A stretch of DNA of 64,000 nucleotides from Streptomyces sp. SID8374 (GTDB lineage: Bacteria; Actinomycetota; Actinomycetes; Streptomycetales; Streptomycetaceae). Positions 14,230 to 61,161 of the stretch are shown piece by piece. A model generated the notes under the pieces. It saw only the letters and a program-made list of their open reading frames with translations. It made no database searches and was not told the DNA's origin. A program made the position numbers and the translations under genes. Every line of letters starts with the position of its first letter. Position 1 is the first letter of the stretch. The DNA is taken from the NCBI RefSeq assembly GCF_009865135.1, contig NZ_WWGH01000001.1:2356001-2420000 (forward strand), read 5' to 3'.

Positions 14230-14545
14230 GAACCCATTGTGCCGTCCGGGGTGCGGGGCGTGCCTGGTGTCCCGTACGCCGGACGGATCCCTCCCCGGCC
14301 CCGCAACTCTTCCGGGACTGTTCACCCCCGCGTGACCTGGTCCTTCCTCGTCCGGACCGGGCGGCGGTTCGAATGGGAACACCAAGAGGTCTGGACCAAT
14401 CGAACCACGCCAATCCGGTGTCTCAATCCATCCGTTGTCGCGGTCTCGCGCAAGTGGTCTATACCTTTGGCGCTAGGGTGGGCCACCTCGATCGAGTGCC
14501 GAAACAGGCATGGAAACGGGTACATATGCAGCCGTGGGGGGCTTC
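14230..14545. other. Divergent intergenic region before the glycosyltransferase
   Basis: There is no gene. The part nearest the glycosyltransferase (about 14440-14480) is less GC-rich and contains CTATACC and CTAGGGT, which could be promoter elements, but I cannot assign a sigma class. A GGGGGG tract just before ATG 14546 serves as its ribosome binding site. Confidence 0.4.
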
Positions 14546-16255
14546 ATGACCGTGCACCACCTTCCGCAACCACCGTCCGACGACGAGCTCTACTGGTACT
14601 TCGGGCCCCAGCGCCGCTGGGTCCTGGTGAGCAGTTCGCTGGCCTTCGTCTTCACGGCGGCCACGATGTTCGCCTTCGCGTTACGGACCCCGGCCCTGTG
14701 GGCGTTCCTCGCGATCCTCGGGCTCAATGTCGTGGCGCTGGCGCTCTCCTCGGTGAACAGCCTGCGTCAGCGCCGGCTGACCCGGGCGTCGCACGAGGTC
14801 CTCGTCCACGCCTGGGCGCCCGCCGAACTCCCCACCGTGGACCTGTACTTGCCGACCTGCGGCGAACCTCTCCCGGTCCTCGCCAACGCCTATCGCGCGG
14901 TCTCCGCCGTGGACTGGCCGGGCGCGCTGACCGTCTGGGTCCTGGACGACGGCGACCGGCCCGAGGTCGCGGCGCTGGCCGCCTCGTACGGCTACGCGTA
15001 CGTCGTCCGGCCCGACCGGGGACACCTGAAGAAGGCGGGCAACCTCAACCACGCGCTGACGTTGAGCAGTTCGGAGTTCATCGCGATCCTGGACGCGGAC
15101 TTCGCACCCCGCCCGGACTTCCTGCGCCACCTCGTTCCGTATCTCGCCGACCCCGCCGTCGGCATCGTGCAGAGCCCTCAGTGCTTCGACACCGACGAGA
15201 CGATGGGGTGGATCCAGCGCGCCGCCGGCTCGGCGCAGGAGTGGTTCTTCCGCTGGATCCAGCCGTCCCGGGACGCCAGCGACGCGGCCATCTGCTGCGG
15301 CTCCAACGCCGTCTACCGGCGCCGCGCGATCGACCTGGCGGGCGGCTTCGCCCGCCTCGACCACAGCGAGGACCTGTACACCGGGCTCGCCCTGCACGAG
15401 CGGGGGTTCCGCACCCAGTACGTCCCCGTCCTGGTCGCCAAGGGCACCTCGCCCGACGAGGTCACCTCCTTCGTCAACCAGCAGTACCGGTGGGCGATGG
15501 GCAACCTCCACCTCCTCGGGACGCCCGTACTGAAGCGGATGCGGGCGCCCTGGCGGATGCGGCTCTGCTTCTACGAGGGCGTCGTCGGGTACCTCACCAC
15601 GGCCGTGAACACCTTCGCCGCGCCGCTGCCGCCGCTGGTGATGATGTTCTGGTACCCGGACCACATCCGGCCCTGGCACGTGCTGCCGCTGCTCGCCCCG
15701 CTCTGGCTCTGGCACGTCCTGCTGCCCCGGGTCAGCCGGACCCGCTGGCGGGTCGAGGTGATCCGGGCCAACGTCCTCACCAGCGTGGCCGCCGCGACCG
15801 CGTTCTGGCACACCCTGCGGGGGCGCAGCGCCGCCTGGGTGCCCACGGGGGTGCGGAGCAAGGGGAGTTCGGGCGGGATGGCCCGGCGGGTGGTGGGCGT
15901 CTCGCTGGTCTGGCTCGTCCTCTCGAACGGGGCCGCGGCGGCCGGGATCGCGCTGGCCGTGGCCCGCAACGGGTGGGAGCCCAACTGGGGGCTGTTCCTC
16001 TACCTGTTGGTGCAGCTCCAGATCAATGTGCCGTTGATACGCGACCTGTCGGCCGAACTGCGGCCGGGGGCGCGGGACGAGGGCGTCCCGAAGTCGCGCG
16101 GTGCGGGCGCCCGGGCCTTCCTGGCGGGCCTGCGCTCCCCCGCCGGCATGCTGCCCCGCCGCTGGCCCGAGACCCTCGCCGCCTCCGCCGTCCTCCTGCT
16201 CACCGGTCTGCTCGCCTCGGGATGGGTCAACCCCATGCTCCCCTGGTCGGGTTGA
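14546..16255 (+). CDS. Cellulose-synthase-like family 2 glycosyltransferase (TTA codon)
   Basis: This 569-residue membrane glycosyltransferase makes or extends a polysaccharide from a nucleotide sugar. The processive GT2 signature is complete: DDGD (about residue 134), DAD (about 182), HSED (about 272) and QQYRW (about 311). Two N-terminal membrane helices precede the catalytic domain, and several more follow it after residue 330. No c-di-GMP-binding PilZ domain is seen in the tail. The leucine codon at 14681-14683 (codon 46) is TTA, so translation should need the bldA tRNA and be tied to development. The next gene, an acyltransferase, is 54 bases downstream and could modify the product. It is not the classical cslA/glxA locus, since no galactose-oxidase-like gene is adjacent. 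Confidence 0.85.
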   Translation: MTVHHLPQPPSDDELYWYFGPQRRWVLVSSSLAFVFTAATMFAFALRTPALWAFLAILGLNVVALALSSVNSLRQRRLTRASHEVLVHAWAPAELPTVDLYLPTCGEPLPVLANAYRAVSAVDWPGALTVWVLDDGDRPEVAALAASYGYAYVVRPDRGHLKKAGNLNHALTLSSSEFIAILDADFAPRPDFLRHLVPYLADPAVGIVQSPQCFDTDETMGWIQRAAGSAQEWFFRWIQPSRDASDAAICCGSNAVYRRRAIDLAGGFARLDHSEDLYTGLALHERGFRTQYVPVLVAKGTSPDEVTSFVNQQYRWAMGNLHLLGTPVLKRMRAPWRMRLCFYEGVVGYLTTAVNTFAAPLPPLVMMFWYPDHIRPWHVLPLLAPLWLWHVLLPRVSRTRWRVEVIRANVLTSVAAATAFWHTLRGRSAAWVPTGVRSKGSSGGMARRVVGVSLVWLVLSNGAAAAGIALAVARNGWEPNWGLFLYLLVQLQINVPLIRDLSAELRPGARDEGVPKSRGAGARAFLAGLRSPAGMLPRRWPETLAASAVLLLTGLLASGWVNPMLPWSG

Positions 16256-49499: not shown

Positions 49500-50720
49500 A
49501 TGAGCCAGGACTCCGCCACCGCGACGGAGGCCGCACGCAAGCTGACCGGGCGGCGACGCCGGGAAGTCGTTGCCGTGCTGCTCTTCAGCGGCGGCCCTAT
49601 CTTCGAGAGCTCCATCCCGCTCTCCGTTTTCGGAATCGACCGGCAGGACGCGGGAGTTCCCCGCTACCGCCTGCTGGTGTGCGGCGGCGAGGACGGACCG
49701 CTGCGCACGACGGGTGGACTCGAACTGACCACGCCGTACGGCCTGGAGGCGATCAGCAGGGCAGGCACCGTGGTGGTGCCCGCCTGGCGGTCGATCACCT
49801 CGCCGCCGCCCGCCGAGGCACTGGACGCGCTGCGGCGCGCCCATGAGGAGGGCGCCCGCATCGTCGGCCTGTGCACGGGAGCCTTCGTGCTCGCGGCGGC
49901 CGGACTGCTGGACGGCCGACCCGCCACCACGCACTGGATGTACGCGCCGACGCTGGCCAAGCGCTATCCGTCGGTGCACGTCGATCCGCGCGAACTCTTC
50001 GTGGACGACGGCGATGTGCTCACCTCCGCCGGCACGGCGGCGGGTATCGACCTCTGCCTCCATATAGTCCGCACCGACCACGGCACGGAGGCGGCGGGCG
50101 CGCTCGCCCGCAGGCTCGTCGTGCCGCCGCGGCGCAGCGGCGGGCAGGAGCGCTACCTGGACAGGTCTTTACCTGAAGAGATCGGCTCCGACCCGCTCGC
50201 CGAGGTCGTGGCCTGGGCGCTGGAGCATCTGCACGAGCAGTTCGACGTGGAGACGCTCGCGGCGCGCGCCTACATGAGCAGGCGGACCTTCGACCGCAGG
50301 TTCCGCTCGCTCACGGGGAGCGCACCGCTCCAGTGGCTGATCACCCAGCGGGTGCTCCAGGCACAGCGGCTGCTGGAGACCTCCGACTACTCGGTCGACG
50401 AGGTCGCCGGCCGCTGCGGCTTCCGCTCACCGGTCGCGCTGCGCGGGCACTTCCGCCGCCAGCTCGGCTCCTCCCCCGCCGCGTACCGGGCCGCCTACCG
50501 GGCCCGTCGTCCGCAGGGGGTGGCGGAGAGCGCCGCGACGGTGCTGGAGACGGTCGTGCCCAGCCAGGGCTCGCCGTCCGGCCGCAGGAGCGCCCCGGCG
50601 CCCTCCGGTGCTCCGGTCCCCGTATCGGCGTCGGCGGGCTCCTCGGAGCACTCGCTGCCGGTCCCTGACGCGTACGTTCCCGGGCGCCCGGCCCTGCCGG
50701 GACAGCGGAGCGCCCCGTAG
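49500..50720 (+). CDS. adpA: AdpA, A-factor-dependent AraC-type master regulator (TTA codon)
   Basis: This 406-residue developmental regulator controls hundreds of genes for aerial growth and secondary metabolism. Residues of about 20-200 are the DJ-1/PfpI-like dimerisation domain ([37 protein letters not shown]). Residues of about 235-335 are the AraC DNA-binding domain ([40 protein letters not shown]). The leucine at codon 224 (50169-50171) is TTA, in the linker between the domains, as in all studied Streptomyces adpA genes, so translation depends on the bldA tRNA. GAGGGGGG precedes ATG 49500. The C-terminal 70 residues are a Pro/Ser/Ala-rich tail. It is also called bldH. Confidence 0.95.
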
Positions 50721-50730
50721 GGTGGGGCGC

Positions 50731-51336
50731 ATGAACGACCGCATGGTGTGGATCGACTGCGAGATGACCGGGCTCTCGTTGACGGACGACGCACTCATCG
50801 AGGTGGCCGCCCTGGTCACCGACTCGGAGTTGAACGTGCTCGGCGACGGGGTGGACATCGTGATCCGCCCGCCGGACGCGGCCCTGGAGACCATGCCCGA
50901 GGTGGTGCGGCAGATGCACACCGCCTCGGGCCTCCTCGACGAGCTGGCCGGGGGCACCACCCTGGCCGACGCCGAGGAGCAGGTCCTGGCGTACGTCCGC
51001 GAGCATGTGAAGGAGCCGGGCAAGGCCCCGCTCTGCGGAAACTCGGTCTCCACCGACCGCGGCTTCCTGGCGCGGGACATGCAGAAGCTGGAGGGGTACC
51101 TCCACTACCGCATCGTGGACGTGTCCTCGATCAAGGAGCTGGCCCGCCGCTGGTATCCCCGGGCGTATTTCAACAGCCCGGAGAAGAACGGCAACCACCG
51201 GGCGCTGGCGGACATCCGCGACTCCATCGCGGAGCTGCGGTACTACCGGGAGGCGGTCTTCGTGCCGCAGCCCGGCCCGGACTCGGAGCGCGCCAAGGAG
51301 ATCGCGGCGCGCCACGTGGTCCGCACCACACCGTAG
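50731..51336 (+). CDS. orn: Oligoribonuclease
   Basis: This 201-residue DEDDh exonuclease degrades two- to five-base RNA fragments and pGpG, ending c-di-GMP turnover. The catalytic set is [13 protein letters not shown] (Asp, Glu), [14 protein letters not shown] and [13 protein letters not shown] (His, Asp). Length matches the family. ATG 50731 has GGTGGGG upstream and lies 10 bases after adpA, a neighbourhood conserved in Streptomyces; whether they share a transcript is unknown. A single tRNA-His gene follows. Confidence 0.95.
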
Positions 51337-51456: not shown

Positions 51457-51529
51457 GTGGGTATAGCTCAGCTGGCAGAGCACCTGGTTGTGGTCCAGGA
51501 TGTCGCGGGTTCAAGTCCCGTTACTCACC
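51457..51529 (+). tRNA. tRNA-His (anticodon GTG)
   Basis: A 73-base cloverleaf is formed. The acceptor GTGGGTA pairs with TACTCAC, the D-arm holds TAGCTCAGC, the anticodon arm reads CTGGTT-GTG-GTCCAG (anticodon at 51490-51492), and the T-arm is GCGGG-TTCAAGT-CCCGT. Discriminator is C (51529), and the base before the acceptor (G 51456) can be the G-1 characteristic of tRNA-His. No CCA is encoded. A UUCG-loop terminator follows at once. Confidence 0.95.
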
Positions 51530-51535
51530 CTGAGG

Positions 51536-51612: not shown

Positions 51613-52203
51613 TCAGAACGTGACGTCGGAGCAGGCGTAGAACGCGTTGCCGGTGTCCGCGATGGTCCAGACGCCGAGGATCAGGTGCCTGCCCGACTTC
51701 TGCGGCAGGGTGCCGTCATGGGTGACCGTGGCACCCGGCTGCCGGCCGCCGAACGGCACCGTGAGGAACGGCTGCGGCTCCAGATCGGCGCGCGTGAGCG
51801 GCTTCGCGGGGTTGTAGCCGTCCTTGGTGACGTAGTACCGGAAGTCGGTCGTGGCGTGCCGGGCGGTGATCCGCCACCGGAACGTGTGGCTCTGCCCGGC
51901 CCGTACGGCGGAGGCGGGCCAGGCCCCGCCGCGCGGGTCGTCCAGCTCGGCGAAGCGCTGGTTGCCTCCGGCGCAGATCAGCCCGTCCCGGGGGCCGCCG
52001 GCCGGGAACCCCTTGGGGCCTTCGACGCTCGGCGGCTCCCACTGGATCTGCCCGCAGTTGCGGACGGTCCCGTTGCCGCAGAGCTGCTGCCGGCTGATGG
52101 GCGAATCGGTGTAGCCGTGGCTCTGTGCGCTGCCGGAGGTGGCCAGCAGGGAGGCCCCGGCGACGCCGAGGCCGAGGAGTAAGGCGGTGATCTTTCTGCG
52201 CAT
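51613..52203 (-). CDS. Secreted AA10 lytic polysaccharide monooxygenase (TTA codon, DasR box)
   Basis: This is a 196-residue copper enzyme that oxidatively cuts crystalline chitin (or cellulose). After a 28-residue signal peptide, mature His29 (HGYTDSPISRQQLC) is the first copper ligand, and His116 in ARHATTDFRYYVTK is the second; NAFYACSDV carries the axial aromatic. Four Cys are in pairs typical of AA10. Codon 8 (52180-52182, inside the signal peptide) is TTA, so translation probably needs bldA. A dre-type palindrome CTTGGTCTAGACCAAG lies 133 bases upstream, matching the DasR-binding consensus. Both point to control by GlcNAc and development. Confidence 0.9.
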   Translation of the reverse strand: MRRKITALLLGLGVAGASLLATSGSAQSHGYTDSPISRQQLCGNGTVRNCGQIQWEPPSVEGPKGFPAGGPRDGLICAGGNQRFAELDDPRGGAWPASAVRAGQSHTFRWRITARHATTDFRYYVTKDGYNPAKPLTRADLEPQPFLTVPFGGRQPGATVTHDGTLPQKSGRHLILGVWTIADTGNAFYACSDVTF

Positions 52204-52251
52204 GTGGTGCTCCTGAGGTGAGGGGTGGAGCTTGCGGACAGATGGACCAGT

Positions 52252-52299
52252 GGATCGATGGATCGGCGGATCGGCGGATCGGTGGATCGGCGGTTCGAT
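52252..52299. repeat. Six 8-base tandem repeats between the LPMO and its DasR box
   Basis: Units GGATCGAT, GGATCGGC (x2), GGATCGGT, GGATCGGC and GGTTCGAT lie head to tail at 52252-52299, followed by CGATCC. The array sits between the LPMO start and the DasR box at 52336-52351, probably inside the 5' untranslated leader, and may affect transcription or be a neutral expansion. Confidence 0.8.
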
Positions 52300-52335
52300 C
52301 GATCCATCGGCCGGGACCGGCGACGGCTCGTCGCA

Positions 52336-52351
52336 CTTGGTCTAGACCAAG
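52336..52351. promoter_or_regulatory. DasR-responsive element (dre) upstream of the LPMO gene
   Basis: CTTGGTCTAGACCAAG is a perfect 16-base palindrome matching the published dre consensus (A-C/G-TGGTCTAGACCA-C/G-T). DasR is the GntR-family repressor of chitin and GlcNAc genes that releases DNA on binding glucosamine-6-phosphate. It lies 133 bases upstream of the LPMO start codon. Confidence 0.85.
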
Positions 52352-52402
52352 ACGGAGGCTAGTCCTGCCTTTTGGTCATGTCCATACCACTGGCGGCACG
52401 AC

Positions 52403-54704: not shown

Positions 54705-55736
54705 TCACGAGGAGTCCCGCACCACCAGCTCCGTGGGCAGCACCACCGTCGGCCGCTCCCCCGTCCGCCCCGCGATCTCCTCCAGCAGGAGCTGGGCCAT
54801 CCGGCGGCCCATCTCCTCGATCGGCTGGCGGACGCTGGTGAGGGCCGGGTGCATATGGCGGGCGACCACCGAGTCGTCGAAGCCGATCAGGGCCACGTCC
54901 TCGGGGATGCGCCGGTCCGCCTCGCGCAGGACCTGGCGGGCGCCGGCCGCCATCACGTCGGAGGCGGCGAAGACCGCGTCCAGGTGGGGGCGGCGGGCCA
55001 GGAGTTCGCGCATCGCCCGGGCGCCGCCCTCCTCGGTGAAGTCGGCGGGGGCGATGAGGCGTTCGTCCGGGGGCAGGCCCGCGGCGGCGAGGGCGGCGCG
55101 GTAGCCGTCGAGGCGGCGCTGGGCACCGTAGACCTCCAGGCGGCCGGTGATCGTGGCGACCGAGCGGCGGCCCCGGGAGATCAGGTGGTCGACGGCGGCC
55201 CGCGCTCCCTCGAAGTTGTCCGAGTCGACCGAGGCCAGCGGCTCGTTCGCGTGCCGGGCGCCGCTGATCACGCAGGGCATGCCCAGCTGTTCCAGCAGTT
55301 CGGGCAGCGGGTCGTCGGCGTGCACCGCGACCAGGAGGACCCCGTCGACCCGGTGCGCCGTCAGGTACTGGGCGAGTCGGCGGCGCTCGCGGTCGTTGCC
55401 CGCGAGGGTGAGGAGCAGCTGCATCTCGGTGTCGGCGAGGGCGGCGCCCACGCCTCGGACTATGGCGGAGAAGTACGGTTCGGCGAAGAAGCGGGTCTCC
55501 GGCTCCGGCACGACCAGCGCGATGGCGTCGGTGCGGTTGCCGGCGAGGGCGCGGGCGGCGCGGTTGGGGACGTAGCCCAGTTCGGCGACGGCCGCCTCGA
55601 CCGCCTCGCGGGTCGCTTCGCTGACCCGGGGCGAGCCGTTGATGACCCGGGAGGCGGTGCCGCGGCCGACGCCGGCCCGGGCCGCGACCTCTTCGAGCGT
55701 GGGCCGCCCGCCGTTCCGTACTCGCGCTGCCGCCAT
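54705..55736 (-). CDS. cebR: LacI-family repressor CebR
   Basis: This 343-residue repressor of cellulose/cello-oligosaccharide use has the LacI helix-turn-helix LEEVAARAGVGRGTASRVIN (residues about 14-33) followed by the hinge GYVPNRAARALAGNRTD, then a periplasmic-binding-like ligand domain (PLASVDSDNFEGARAAVDHL; GFDDSVVARHMHPALTSVRQ). Cellobiose or cellotriose is the known inducer in S. scabiei and S. griseus. GAGG lies upstream of ATG 55736. Three CebR boxes in this window lie at this gene, bglC and cebE. A terminator separates it from bglC. Confidence 0.9.
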   Translation of the reverse strand: MAAARVRNGGRPTLEEVAARAGVGRGTASRVINGSPRVSEATREAVEAAVAELGYVPNRAARALAGNRTDAIALVVPEPETRFFAEPYFSAIVRGVGAALADTEMQLLLTLAGNDRERRRLAQYLTAHRVDGVLLVAVHADDPLPELLEQLGMPCVISGARHANEPLASVDSDNFEGARAAVDHLISRGRRSVATITGRLEVYGAQRRLDGYRAALAAAGLPPDERLIAPADFTEEGGARAMRELLARRPHLDAVFAASDVMAAGARQVLREADRRIPEDVALIGFDDSVVARHMHPALTSVRQPIEEMGRRMAQLLLEEIAGRTGERPTVVLPTELVVRDSS

Positions 55737-55828
55737 GGCTGCCTCCCCGTTCCCGGTCAATTTCTCACAGCCGTACAGTCAATCCAAGTCCTGGATCGAT
55801 CACTCCGACGAGCGTACGGACAGTGTAT

Positions 55829-55842
55829 TGGGAGCGCTCCCA
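55829..55842. promoter_or_regulatory. CebR box upstream of cebR
   Basis: TGGGAGCGCTCCCA is the perfect 14-base CebR operator, about 93 bases before cebR. It suggests autoregulation. Confidence 0.9.
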
Positions 55843-55857
55843 GGACCGGGTGAAGGT

Positions 55858-55889
55858 GTGGGCCCCGGTCTGCCGCCACCGGGGCCCAC
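55858..55889. terminator. Terminator between bglC and cebR
   Basis: GTGGGCCCCGG (55858-55868) pairs with CCGGGGCCCAC (55879-55889) around a 10-base loop, 14 bases past the bglC stop. Confidence 0.7.
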
Positions 55890-55902
55890 GGCCTTCGAGG
55901 CG

Positions 55903-57360
55903 TCACGCCTCCGGCGGCAGCCCGTGCCGTGCGATCACCTCGCTGTACCAGTGCGCGCTCGCCTTGGGGGTGCGGAGCTGGGTCTCGTAGTCGATGTGCA
56001 CCGCGCCGAACCGCTTCGCATAGCCGTACCCCCACTCGAAGTTGTCCATCAGCGACCAGAGGAAGTAGCCGCGTACGTCGGCCCCGTCGGCCACCGCCCG
56101 CTGTACGGCGGCGAGATGGCCGTGCAGATAGGCGATCCGCTCCGGGTCGTGGACCTGGCCGTCCGCGGCCACGGTGTCCTCGAAGGCAGCGCCGTTCTCG
56201 GTGACCATCAGCGGCAGGCCCGGGTTCTCGCGGGTGACGTCCATGAGGAGGGCGTGGAGGCCGTCCGGGTCGACCGACCAGTTCATGGCCGTACGCGGCT
56301 TGCCCTCGGCCAGGTGGAACGCGACGTGCTCCGAGCCCGGCCACGGCGAGTGGTCGCTGTTGCCGTGGCCGTCGTTGCGGGTGTCACCGGCGCCGGAGGC
56401 GGGCGTGGAGACGATCGTGGGCGTGTAGTAGTTGACGCCGAGCACGTCGATGGGGGCGGCGATGGCGGCGAGGTCCCCGTCGTGGATCAACTCCGGCCAG
56501 TTCACGATGCGTTCGGTGTCGGTCAGCAGGTCTTCCGGGTACGCGCCCTTCAGCATCGGGCCCGTGAAGATCCGGTTGCCCACCGCGTCGATCCGGCGCG
56601 CCGCGTCCGCGTCCGCCTCACTGCCGGTCAGCGGGCGCACCTGGTGGAGGTTGAGGGTGACCGAGGTCTGCGCGGCAGCGGGGAGGTTGGCGCGCAGCGC
56701 CTCGGTCGCCCGGCCGTGGGCCAGGTTGAGGTGGTGGGCGGCCCGCAGTGCGGCGGCCGATTCGGTGCGGCCGGGGGCGTGGACCCCGGAGCCGTAACCG
56801 AGGAAGGCCGTGCACCAGGGCTCGTTGAGCGTCGTCCACATCCCGACCCGGTCGCCGAGCGCACGGGCCATGATGGCCGCGTAGTCGGCGAACCGTTCGG
56901 CCGTCGCGCGCTCGGGCCAGCCGCCCGCGTCCTCCAGCTCCTGGGGCAGGTCCCAGTGGTAGAGCGTGGCGACGGGCGTGATGCCGGCCGCCAGCAGCTC
57001 GTCGACGAGCGAGCGGTAGAAGTCCAGGCCGCGTTCGACGGCGGGGCCCCGGCCGGTGGGCTGGACGCGGGACCAGGAGACGGAGAAGCGGTACGCCTTG
57101 AGGCCGAGCCGCTTCATCAGGGCGACGTCGTCGCGGTAGCGGTGGAAGTGGTCGGCGGCCACGTCTCCGGTGTCGCCGTTCTGCACCTTGCCGGGGGTGT
57201 GGCTGAAGGTGTCCCAGATGGAGGGGGTGCGGCCGTTCTCGGCGGCCGCCCCTTCCACCTGGTACGCGGCCGTGGCGGCGCCCCAGATGAAGCCCGTCGG
57301 GAAGGGGGCGGGGGCGGAGGCTGCCTGCTGCGGAGCTGTTTCGGATCGTACTGCTGTCAT
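55903..57360 (-). CDS. bglC: GH1 beta-glucosidase BglC
   Basis: This 485-residue intracellular beta-glucosidase cleaves imported cellobiose/cello-oligosaccharides to glucose. The acid/base Glu is in WTTLNEPWC (about residue 182), and the nucleophile Glu is in [34 protein letters not shown] is the N-terminal GH1 block and [20 protein letters not shown] the C-terminal one. ATG 57360 is chosen because it starts the GH1 domain; the ribosome binding site is GGGAG, part of the CebR box just upstream (57362-57375). It is the last gene of the ceb cluster transcribed from the cebE side or from its own promoter. Confidence 0.9.
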
Positions 57361-57361
57361 G

Positions 57362-57375
57362 TGGGAGCGCTCCCA
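57362..57375. promoter_or_regulatory. CebR box overlapping the bglC ribosome binding site
   Basis: TGGGAGCGCTCCCA, identical to the other two boxes, is directly before ATG 57360. Its GGGAG on the minus strand is also the only ribosome-binding-like sequence, so CebR binding could block translation initiation or act as a roadblock. Confidence 0.85.
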
Positions 57376-57410
57376 TAGGGGTGGTGGAGGAGGGGGATGA
57401 GGTGGAGGGG

Positions 57411-57438
57411 GCGGTGCGGTCCCGGCCGGCCGCACCGC
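57411..57438. terminator. Hairpin between cebG and bglC
   Basis: GCGGTGCGG (57411-57419) pairs with CCGCACCGC (57430-57438). It lies just past the cebG stop, between the transporter operon and bglC. Confidence 0.5.
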
Positions 57439-57446
57439 TCGTGGCG

Positions 57447-58367
57447 TCAGCCCTTGACCGCACCCGACATGATCCCGCCGACGATCTTCTTGCCGAAGAG
57501 CACGAAGACCAGCAGCAGCGGCAGCGTGCTGATCAGCGCGCCCGCCATGACGATGGACTGGTCGGGGGTGTACGAGGCGCTGAGCTGGCCGAGGGCCACC
57601 TGAAGGGTGGGGTTCTGCTGGTTCAGGGCGAGGTAGGGCCAGAAGAAGTCGTTCCACGCCTGGACGAAGGTGAGCATCCCGAGCACCATCATCGCGGGGC
57701 GGGCCACCGGCAGCACCACGCTCACCACGATGCGGAAGTTGTTCGCCCCGTCGATCTTGGCCGCCTCGATCAGCTCGTACGGCAGCGCCTCGATCAGGTA
57801 CTGGCGCATGAAGAACACGCCGAACGCGCTCACCAGCGTCGGGAAGATCACCGATTCGAGCTGGCCGCCCCAGCCGAGGCCGGACATCATCATGAAGAGC
57901 GGGACCACGCTGAGCTGCGGCGGGATCGTGAGCGTGGCGATGACGGCGGTCATCAGCCAGCCCCGGCCCCGGAAGCGCATCTTGGCGAAGGCATATCCGG
58001 CGAGCGTGCAGAAGAAGAGCGTCGCGGCCGTGATGGACGACGAGACGATGATGCTGTTGACGATCGCCTTGCCGAGGTTGGCCTGCTCCCAGGCCGTCCG
58101 GACGTTCTCCACGAGCTGGCCGCCCGGGAGGAACGGCGGTGTGGAGGCGAGGACTTCGTCCTGGGTACGGGAGGCCGCCACCAGGGTCCAGTACAGCGGC
58201 AGCAGCGAGCCGAAGCCGACGACGGCGAGCGCGATGTACGCGAACGGGCCGCCCTTCATCTGCTGGCCCGCGCCCATCCTGAAGCGGCTCGGGCGGTCCG
58301 GCCGGCCGCCCGTCGGGGACGGCGCGAGCCGCACGGGGGCGGTGGGTGTGGGGCTGGTCATGGTCAT
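57447..58367 (-). CDS. cebG: Cellobiose ABC transporter permease CebG
   Basis: This 306-residue inner-membrane permease of the MalG family has about six helices and the EAA loop ([19 protein letters not shown]). The C-terminal [14 protein letters not shown] is typical of sugar permeases. It pairs with CebF and CebE; an ATPase (MsiK in Streptomyces, encoded elsewhere) is not in the window. The first 35 residues are a Thr/Pro-rich polar stretch. It is 14 bases after cebF. Confidence 0.9.
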
Positions 58368-58381
58368 GGAATCGCTCCCGG

Positions 58382-59431
58382 TCAGACCGCGGAATCGGAC
58401 GTGCGGACGTAGCGGCCGATGAGCCAGTTGACGCCTGCGATGAGGAGCAGCAGTGCCAGCATCGCCCAGGCGACGGCGGCGGCCGGACCGAGATGGCCGA
58501 GGTTCCAGCCGTAGTTGTAGAGGTAGATGCTGAGCGTCTCGTACTGGTTCTCGTTGCCGCCGGTGGCGCCCATCGCGCCGCCCTCCAGCAGCAGCGGCTC
58601 ACCGAACAGCTGCATGGAGCCGATGGTCGAGATGACGATCGTGAACAGGATCGTCGGCCGCAGCGAGGGGATGGTCACCTTGAGGAACTGCTGCCAGCGC
58701 GAGGCGCCGTCCAACGAGGCCGCTTCGTAGAGGTCGTTGGGGACCGCCTGCATGGCCGCGAGGTAGATCAGCGCGTTGTAGCCGGTCCAGCGCCAGATCA
58801 CGATGATCGAGATCGCGAGCTTCGAAGTCCAGTGTCCGTTGGCCCAGTTGACCGGGTCGAAGCCGACGAGGCCGAGCGTCCAGTTGAGCAGTCCGCCGTC
58901 CGCCCGGAAGACCAGTGCGAAGACGAGGGCGGCCGAGGCGACCGAGGTCGCGTACGGCGTCAGGATGATCGTGCGCCAGAACGTGCTTGCGCGCAGGCGG
59001 TAGTTGAGGAGGTGGGCGAGGCCGAGGGCCACCAGGAGCTGCGGGACGGTGGAGATGACGCCGATCAGGAAGGTGTTGCTGACCGAGGTCCAGAACTCCG
59101 GGTCGTGCAGGATCTTGTCGAAGTTCTCCCAGCCCACCCACTCCATGGTGTCCAGGCCGGTCATCTCCACCCGGTGCAGGGCGATCCAGCCGGTGTAGAG
59201 GAGCGGGTAGAGGCCGAAGGCGCCGAAGACCAGGAAGAACGGCGCTATGTACGCGTACGGGGACGCCTTGTCGTCGAACCGCCACAGCCGACTGCGCCAC
59301 AACTGCCGCCGCTCGGACGGTGGTTCCTTCTGCGGTTCGCGGGGCGGGGATGCGTACGCGTCCCGGGTGGGGGTCGAGGTTGCCACGGGCGGGAGTCCTT
59401 CCCTGGGGGCGCCGGCGGGCGGCTGAGTCAT
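58382..59431 (-). CDS. cebF: Cellobiose ABC transporter permease CebF
   Basis: This 349-residue inner-membrane permease of the MalF family has six predicted helices, the EAA motif [20 protein letters not shown], and a typical long periplasmic loop after helix 1 or 2 ([17 protein letters not shown]). It forms the heterodimer with CebG. The first 50 residues are polar and Pro-rich, so the start could be a later codon. It follows cebE after an 85-base spacer with a strong hairpin. Confidence 0.9.
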
Positions 59432-59456
59432 GGAGTGGGCGGGCCGGTGACGGGCG

Positions 59457-59500
59457 GCCGGGGCGGGCGGGCGCGGCAGGAGTCACCCGCCCGCCCCGGC
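59457..59500. terminator. Intercistronic hairpin between cebE and cebF
   Basis: A perfect 15-base stem (59457-59471 with 59486-59500) lies in the spacer after cebE. Such a hairpin can limit read-through or protect the upstream message, giving more binding protein than permease. Confidence 0.65.
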
Positions 59501-59516
59501 GTGCGGCCGGTTCAGC

Positions 59517-60842
59517 TCAGCCGATCGCCTTGTCGATCGTGCGGACCGCGACGTCCCAGGCCGCGTCCGGCTTCGTGCCGCGCTGCTCCATGTTGTTGAT
59601 CTGCGTGGAGATCGAGTCCTTGATCACGCCGTCCTTCGGGCCGAGCACCGCCTCGGGGATGGACTTCGCCCCGTCCGCGTAGATCTGGCCGATGGGGGCG
59701 TTGTTGAAGTACGGCAGGGTGGCGGTCTTCACGTCGGGCAGCTCGTAGGCTCCCTGGTTGGACGGGAAGACGCCGATCGCCTTGAAGACGGCGGCCTGCT
59801 GCTCGGGGGCGGTCAGCCACTTGACGAGCTTGGCGGCCTCGTCGACGTTCTTGCCGGACTTCGGTACGGCGAGGAAGGAGCCGCCCCAGTTGGCGGCGGT
59901 GGCGCCGGGGGCGCTGGTGATGTCCCACTTGCCCTTGTTGGCGTCACCGGCGTACGTGGAGATCTGGCCGGCCATCCAGGCGGGGCAGACGACGGTGGCG
60001 ACGGTGCTCTTGCGCAGGGCCGCCTGCCACTGGTCCTCGAACTGGGCCAGGCCCTGCGTCAGCTTCTTGGACGCGGCCTCGGCGGCCAGGTCCCAGCCCT
60101 TCTTGACGCTGGCGCTCTCCTTGTAGACGGGCTTGCCGCTCGCGTCGTAGTACTGCTCGGGGCTGGAGCTGACGACCGCGTTGAACATGGCGCTGGCGGA
60201 GTCCATGAAGTACGTGCCCTTGGGCGCCTTCTTCTTGTACTCCTCGCCGAGTGCGAGGAAGTCCTCCCAGCCGCCGGCCGTCCGCTTGGCGACCTCGGTG
60301 CGGTCGGTGGGCAGCCCGGCCTTCTCGAACAGCTCGCGGTTGTAGCAGAGGGACATGGGGCCGATGTCGGTGCCCGCGCCGATCATCGCGCCGCTGGGGG
60401 CGGTGGCCTGCTTGGCCTTCCAGGAGACCCACTCGTCGACGTCGATCACCTTGGAGAGGTCGGCGAAGGAGTCCGCCTTGGTGTCGACGATCTCCTTGAT
60501 CCGGCCGACCTCGATGCCCTGGACGTCGGCGAGGCCACTGCCCGAGTTCAGCTGCTGGAGCAGCTTGGGGTAGTAGTTCTTCTCCTCGGCGGTGGTGTCC
60601 TCCTTGACCGTGATCTTCGGGTTCAGCTCGTGGTACTTCTCGAAGAGCCCGGCCTCCTTGTACCCGAACTGGCCGAAGTCGGCCACGGTCAGCGTGATGT
60701 TGCCGTCGGCGTCGGCGCCCTTGCTGCCGGAGTCGGACGAGCCGCCGCAGCCGGTGAGCAGGAGGGCGGTGACCGTGAGGCCGGTGGTGGCCACGATCGC
60801 GGTTCTACGGCGTCGACCGGCAACGCTGCGGGTGATGCGCAT
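59517..60842 (-). CDS. cebE: Cellobiose-binding lipoprotein CebE
   Basis: This 441-residue extracellular solute-binding lipoprotein captures cellobiose and cellotriose for the CebFG transporter. A twin-basic N-terminus (RRRRTAIVATTGL) with the lipobox LLLTGC (about residue 32) directs export and lipidation. The type 1 SBP fold has TLTVADFGQFGYKEAGLFEK, ADVQGIEVGRIKEIVD and WLTAPEQQAAVFKAIGVFP. AAGGAG precedes ATG 60842. The CebR box at 60907-60920 is 65 bases upstream and controls cebEFG. Confidence 0.9.
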   Translation of the reverse strand: MRITRSVAGRRRRTAIVATTGLTVTALLLTGCGGSSDSGSKGADADGNITLTVADFGQFGYKEAGLFEKYHELNPKITVKEDTTAEEKNYYPKLLQQLNSGSGLADVQGIEVGRIKEIVDTKADSFADLSKVIDVDEWVSWKAKQATAPSGAMIGAGTDIGPMSLCYNRELFEKAGLPTDRTEVAKRTAGGWEDFLALGEEYKKKAPKGTYFMDSASAMFNAVVSSSPEQYYDASGKPVYKESASVKKGWDLAAEAASKKLTQGLAQFEDQWQAALRKSTVATVVCPAWMAGQISTYAGDANKGKWDITSAPGATAANWGGSFLAVPKSGKNVDEAAKLVKWLTAPEQQAAVFKAIGVFPSNQGAYELPDVKTATLPYFNNAPIGQIYADGAKSIPEAVLGPKDGVIKDSISTQINNMEQRGTKPDAAWDVAVRTIDKAIG

Positions 60843-60906
60843 TCCACTGCTCCTTGTTCCGGGGAGTCCTACGGAAGGAAGCGCGCGAGATCCCCTCCCC
60901 GTGGTG

Positions 60907-60920
60907 TGGGAGCGCTCCCA
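60907..60920. promoter_or_regulatory. CebR box upstream of cebE
   Basis: TGGGAGCGCTCCCA lies 65 bases upstream of cebE, in the promoter region of cebEFG. It is identical to the boxes at cebR and bglC. Confidence 0.9.
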
Positions 60921-61161
60921 TGCGCCGATGCCGGAAGGTTCCTGCCTCAAGGGGGTGAGTGTCAAGAGTTGAAGACGAATCCGTTGCCGCCGGATGTCCA
61001 CCACGTCACGCGGGGACGTCGCACCCGGCCACCCGTCGAGAGGTGAACGGGAGCAGCGGGAAGCGGGCGAGGTGCCGGGAGGGACCACCCCTGTTAATTT
61101 CGCCTTTATGTCCCCTTTGATCATGCTGGTCTCCAGCACCGGACCGGGTGAGTGACGCGGG

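What the first reader, a model, noticed from the sequence alone, without database searches (positions are those of the whole stretch)
52180..52351. LPMO gene with both a TTA codon and a DasR box
Codon 8, in the signal peptide, is TTA, and a perfect dre palindrome lies 133 bases upstream with an 8-base tandem array between. A chitin-active LPMO would thus be gated by GlcNAc status and by bldA. I know of no description of this double control for an LPMO.
Basis: partly seen in the sequence, partly recalled or inferred. Interest (0 to 1): 0.6.

Follow-up and report, generated by a model that had tools for sequence, protein, structure and literature searches.

The report
Doubly gated chitin-cutting enzyme gene
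A Streptomyces gene for a secreted, predicted chitin-cutting copper enzyme carries both a chitin-signal (DasR) switch and the rare TTA codon tied to development; both are conserved in a family of relatives, and the arrangement closely resembles one already proposed for cellulose-cutting enzymes.

Summary
The AA10 LPMO gene (51613-52203, minus strand) has TTA as codon 8, in the signal peptide, and a palindromic dre 132 bases upstream. (1) The operator is two sites: a second, imperfect repeat 40 bp further upstream overlaps a putative -35, and the palindrome lies at the likely start of transcription. Nearly all of 100 related LPMO genes share this layout. GGTCTAGACC occurs only three times in the 7.78-Mb genome, each before a chitin-degradation gene. 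(2) TTA sits at the same position in 44 of 49 orthologues, against none at about 680 other leucine codons of those genes. (3) A paralogue with nearly the same promoter but no TTA exists in this genome and in other TTA-carrying genomes: a natural control. The 8-base array is a leader expansion seen only in this strain. DasR binding to LPMO promoters is published (SCO6345, SCO7225), and an LPMO with repressor box plus early TTA has been proposed for CelS2 (CebR). Double control by DasR and bldA is therefore plausible and conserved, but untested, and extends a known scheme. Selection for an open mRNA start remains a rival for the TTA.

The parts
51613..52203 (-). AA10 LPMO gene (196 aa, secreted, PF03067 over the whole mature part)
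   Evidence: ORF and translation; PF03067 E 2.6e-51; best solved relative 5ftz over residues 29-196, E 1.2e-74
52120..52203 (-). Signal peptide, codons 1-28; mature protein begins at His29 (LPMO N-terminal histidine)
   Evidence: alignment to 5ftz starts at His29
52180..52182 (-). TTA (UUA) leucine codon 8, the putative bldA-dependent step
   Evidence: sequence; 43 of 49 orthologues at codon 8 plus one at the aligned codon 9
52210..52214 (-). AGGAG ribosome-binding site, 6 bases before the ATG
   Evidence: sequence; leader end CTCAGGAGCACCAC conserved in near relatives
52336..52351 (-). Downstream dre: CTTGGTCTAGACCAAG palindrome, at the inferred transcription start
   Evidence: conserved in all orthologues and nearly all paralogues
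52376..52391 (-). Upstream dre-like repeat AGTGGTATGGACATGA, 40 bp from the palindrome
   Evidence: repeat at about the same spacing in nearly all homologous promoters
52356..52384 (-). Inferred promoter: -35 TGGACA (52379-52384, inside the upstream repeat), 17-bp spacer, -10 TAGCCT (52356-52361)
   Evidence: hexamers and spacing conserved; not found by the simple sigma-70 scan; no transcription start mapped
52250..52304 (-). Imperfect 8-bp tandem array in the transcribed leader, specific to this strain
   Evidence: TRF; absent from ten near relatives
49500..50720 (+). AdpA-like AraC-family regulator with TTA codon 224 (neighbour; its own product would be bldA-dependent)
   Evidence: Pfam DJ-1_PfpI + HTH_18, TTA; AdpA identity inferred from the adjacent oligoribonuclease gene and TTA position
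50725..51336 (+). Oligoribonuclease gene (ornA)
   Evidence: NCBIfam PRK05359 above cut-off
51457..51530 (+). tRNA-His gene between ornA and the LPMO gene
   Evidence: ARAGORN

Best explanation
The gene encodes a secreted LPMO, most likely chitin-active, under two gates. Gate 1 (transcription): DasR bound to the pair of dre sites that straddles the promoter blocks transcription until chitin-derived GlcNAc raises glucosamine-6-phosphate and releases DasR. Gate 2 (translation): UUA at codon 8 lets the mRNA be translated fully only when the bldA tRNA-Leu(UAA) is available, so the enzyme is made late or under stress even when chitin is present. The paralogue 40 kb away has nearly the same promoter and no TTA, so it would respond to chitin alone. 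Shown here: the sequence elements, their conservation, and the presence of DasR and tRNA-Leu(UAA) genes. Inferred: DasR binding at this site, the transcription start, bldA dependence, substrate and timing.
For: Two-site operator: downstream site in all 49 clade members and nearly all paralogues, upstream repeat in nearly all. All three genomic GGTCTAGACC sites precede chitin-degradation genes: this LPMO, its paralogue and a GH19-like chitinase. A near-identical DasR is encoded in the genome (E 1e-143 to 9i0v/4zs8) and tRNA-Leu(TAA) is present. Codon 8 or its aligned equivalent is TTA in 44 of 49 orthologues, with no TTA at about 680 other Leu codons and GC3 of 0.94. The TTA persists where the gene lies elsewhere in the genome. 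Paralogues recovered from nine other TTA-carrying genomes and from the window's own have dre and no TTA. Published DasR binding to SCO6345 and SCO7225.
Against: No binding or expression data exist for this gene. Deleting dasR in S. coelicolor changed chitinase transcripts only slightly. UUA can be mistranslated in bldA mutants, especially when transcription is high. By number of codon changes on the tree, codon 8 (5 changes) is better conserved than the median degenerate site (7) but not exceptional: 32 of 92 such sites have 5 or fewer. TTA has been lost in 5 members (TTG, TTC, TCA x3). TTA also weakens predicted structure at the mRNA start.
Confidence: 0.6

Rival explanations
1. The gene is an ordinary DasR target, and TTA at codon 8 is kept because an A/U-rich codon near the start keeps the mRNA open for initiation, not for bldA control.
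For: Replacing TTA by CTC or CTG lowers predicted folding energy of -30..+60 by 1.7 and 2.7 kcal/mol on average over 42 orthologues. The five replacements seen (TTG, TTC, TCA x3) are all one base away and still rather A/U-rich.
Against: Paralogues with the same promoter and a similar start use GCC or GCG there. TTA is the only A/T-ending codon in the gene held by more than about half of the clade. Only one of 45 leucine codons at the site is another Leu codon.
Confidence: 0.22
2. Shared descent only: TTA arose once in this LPMO lineage and is lost slowly, without current function.
For: One gain explains the distribution within the clade, and the codon-change count at the site overlaps that of many other sites.
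Against: The genes run at 94% GC3 and use TTA nowhere else, so neutral decay to CTC or CTG would be expected; none is seen at this position. TTA with a dre also appears elsewhere in the family (L058 codon 12; L233 codon 10).
Confidence: 0.13
3. The neighbouring AdpA-like regulator (itself TTA-containing) drives the gene, so bldA acts mainly indirectly.
For: The tRNA-His gene that marks the adpA-like/ornA locus lies next door in the window and in eight of the nine closest relatives.
Against: No TGGCSNGWWY AdpA-type match lies between 49100 and 53000. Most TTA-carrying orthologues lack the tRNA-His neighbour.
Confidence: 0.08

Closest known systems
S. coelicolor DasR-bound LPMO genes SCO6345 (ScLPMO10E by inference) and SCO7225 (ScLPMO10G)
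   Same: LPMO-type chitin-binding protein genes with dre sites; DasR binding by EMSA and ChIP-chip; chitin-induced transcripts for Sclpmo10E and 10G (PMC6097792, PMC4398421, PMC9820598)
   Different: No TTA codon is reported for them in the papers read; I could not check their sequences by name here
CelS2-type cellulose LPMO, S. scabies scab21081
   Same: LPMO with a substrate-repressor box (CebR) and TTA at nucleotide 22, i.e. codon 8; proposed bldA control (PMC5332605). In my survey 9 of 20 CebR-box LPMOs had TTA in the signal peptide
   Different: Cellulose rather than chitin, CebR rather than DasR, different LPMO subfamily; also untested
S. halstedii JM8 endoglucanase and cellulose-binding protein genes (Garda et al. 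1997)
   Same: Secreted polysaccharide-degradation genes reported as co-regulated by a TTA codon; PMC9820598 cites it for CelS2 co-expression with cellulase
   Different: Cellulose system, no DasR. Only the title was available here
actII-ORF4 and redZ of S. coelicolor
   Same: DasR targets (PMC4398421); actII-ORF4 is listed as a TTA-containing regulator (PMC2000904), redZ from my own knowledge
   Different: Pathway regulators of antibiotics, not an exported enzyme; TTA is not in a signal peptide

Membership tests
AA10 LPMO (PF03067) | Full-length family match with N-terminal histidine after signal cleavage | tested here: met
   PF03067 positions 1-183, 175 bits; match to 5ftz starts at His29
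AA10 LPMO (PF03067) | Oxidative cleavage of chitin | not testable with these tools
   Inferred from nearest solved relatives 5ftz and CBP21
DasR core regulon | dre element in the promoter | tested here: met
   core 12/12, consensus 12/16, conserved pair
DasR core regulon | DasR encoded in the genome | tested here: met
   (protein from G000:C2:70408-70830, locus L116)
DasR core regulon | DasR binding and GlcNAc-responsive transcription | not testable with these tools
   published for other LPMO genes only
bldA-dependent genes | In-frame TTA codon in the true reading frame | tested here: met
   start supported by conserved RBS and orthologue N-termini
bldA-dependent genes | TTA conserved among orthologues | tested here: met
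   44 of 49
bldA-dependent genes | tRNA-Leu(UAA) gene present | tested here: met
bldA-dependent genes | Loss of product in a bldA mutant | not testable with these tools
   experiment needed

The most novel reading that the evidence does not exclude
Duplicated chitin LPMOs with the same DasR promoter divide labour in time: the TTA-free copy serves the vegetative response to chitin, and the TTA copy is held for the developmental or stress phase, for example attack on chitin or fungal walls around sporulation. More broadly, TTA in the signal peptide would be a recurrent add-on to substrate-repressed LPMO genes (DasR or CebR), acquired several times.
Probability: 0.3. Interest if true: 0.55.

Novelty: new member of a known kind. 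Interest (0 to 1): 0.45.

Why it matters
bldA is mostly discussed through antibiotic regulators and morphogenesis. A conserved UUA in an exported chitin-degrading enzyme, with a TTA-free duplicate under nearly the same promoter, would link nutrient sensing and developmental timing at the level of a single enzyme. The two copies form a ready-made matched pair for measuring what a UUA codon does in nature. In the sample of LPMO genes surveyed, TTA occurred only in those with a substrate-repressor box (10 of 34 against 0 of 55), though the genes are related to each other.

Tried and rejected
A role for the 8-bp array between operator and start: rejected as general, because near relatives have leaders of about 63-78 bases without it. 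Direct AdpA control: no site found. A CebR box at this LPMO: none; boxes in the window are at 55829, 57362 and 60907. The first pattern searches for bldA failed and a looser one found it. Simple sigma-70 scan: no hit, so the promoter rests on conservation alone. Garda 1997 and Rigali 2008 were not held. Another TTA call in the window (59517-61139) is probably an artefact of a too-early start codon.

Full report
Observation. The gene at 51613-52203 (minus) is an AA10 LPMO of 196 aa. Codon 8 is TTA, the only TTA in the gene; its other 14 Leu codons are CTC or CTG. CTTGGTCTAGACCAAG at 52336-52351 is a perfect palindrome with the 12-bp dre core. The published 16-bp consensus A(G/C)TGGTCTAGACCA(G/C)T is matched at 12 of 16 positions. 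The expected number of matches to this 16-mer within 3 mismatches in the window is 0.07.

The operator is larger than described. Upstream regions of 100 related LPMO genes, aligned on the palindrome, show in nearly all a second, imperfect repeat (ATTGGTATGGACATG-like) about 40 bp upstream, then a spacer of about 17 bp and a TAGCCT/TAATCT-like -10, then the palindrome. The TGGACA inside the upstream repeat fits a -35. A repressor bound at both repeats would cover the promoter and its start. This resembles the old 'direct repeats' of chitinase promoters, whose single-base mutation deregulates expression and which DasR binds. The promoter assignment is an inference; a plain sigma-70 scan does not call it.

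Specificity of the dre. GGTCTAGACC is found at three places in 7.78 Mb, against 19 for the reversed control: before this LPMO, before its paralogue (C1:2448814) and before a GH19-like chitinase (C1:4111486; chitinase identity judged by eye from the translation). The genome encodes a protein nearly identical to DasR of the solved structures.

The TTA codon. Relatives came from genome contigs and 296 genus genomes. A tree of mature domains splits the family into a paralogue group and an orthologue group of 52 rows. In the main orthologue set of 49 (one added by hand because its frame is interrupted), 43 have TTA at codon 8 and one has it at codon 9 after a one-codon insertion. The rest have TTG, TTC or TCA (three). 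Four early-branching relatives (L042, L048, L093, L105) lack it. No other position in these 49 genes carries TTA, and GC3 is 0.94. The gene lies beside tRNA-His in the window's close relatives only, so the TTA is tied to the gene and not to the locus. Caution: codon 8 shows 5 changes on the tree, against a median of 7 at degenerate sites, and 32 of 92 sites do as well. The unusual point is which codon is kept, not the rate alone.

Matched paralogue. In the window's genome (C1:2448143) and in nine other TTA-carrying genomes for which the second copy was recovered, the second LPMO has a dre and no TTA. For a few genomes my parser recovered nothing, so 'all' is not claimed.

Machinery. tRNA-Leu(TAA) is present at C1:2749430. 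The neighbour 49500-50720 is AdpA-like with its own TTA at codon 224, but no AdpA-type site lies near the LPMO promoter.

Wider survey. Among 89 further LPMO genes from genus genomes, TTA in the signal peptide occurs in 9 of 20 with a CebR box, 1 of 14 HGYTD-type genes with dre, and 0 of 55 others; none has TTA outside the signal peptide. Fisher p is 2.6e-5 for box against no box, but the genes are related and the p-value is not corrected for that. Start codons were chosen by script.

Prior work. DasR binds LPMO promoters in S. coelicolor. S. scabies celS2 was listed with a CebR box and TTA at nucleotide 22 as possibly bldA-regulated. S. halstedii cellulase genes were reported as co-regulated by a TTA codon (title). 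DasR with TTA is known for antibiotic regulators (actII-ORF4). I found no description of DasR plus TTA in a chitin LPMO in the open-access papers searched; subscription papers were not searched.

Verdict. The double signature is real and conserved, and the double-gate reading is the best explanation (0.6). The rival that TTA keeps the mRNA start open is not excluded: TTA weakens predicted structure by 1.7-2.7 kcal/mol relative to CTC/CTG. It is a chitin/DasR counterpart of a scheme already proposed for cellulose/CebR LPMOs, hence a new member of a known kind.

Noticed in passing
14370-16255 (+): A GT2 glycosyltransferase gene has two dre-like sites upstream (14385 AGAGGTCTGGACCAAT, 14453 AGTGGTCTATACCTTT), kept in six orthologues from other genomes; a possible DasR target. 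A TTA codon in it is shared only with one near relative.
   Followed up: partly
54705-61139: The LPMO gene sits near a likely CebR-type LacI regulator, a beta-glucosidase and a sugar-binding protein, with three perfect CebR boxes (55829, 57362, 60907).
   Followed up: partly
52250-52304: An 8-bp (GATCGGCG-like) tandem array in the LPMO leader of this strain is absent from S. microflavus JCM 4496 and other near relatives.
   Followed up: yes
L233, L058: Separate occurrences of TTA in the signal peptide of other dre-bearing chitin-type LPMOs (codons 10 and 12).
   Followed up: no
L152-L241: TTA in these LPMO genes was confined to signal peptides and to genes with a CebR box or dre.
   Followed up: partly
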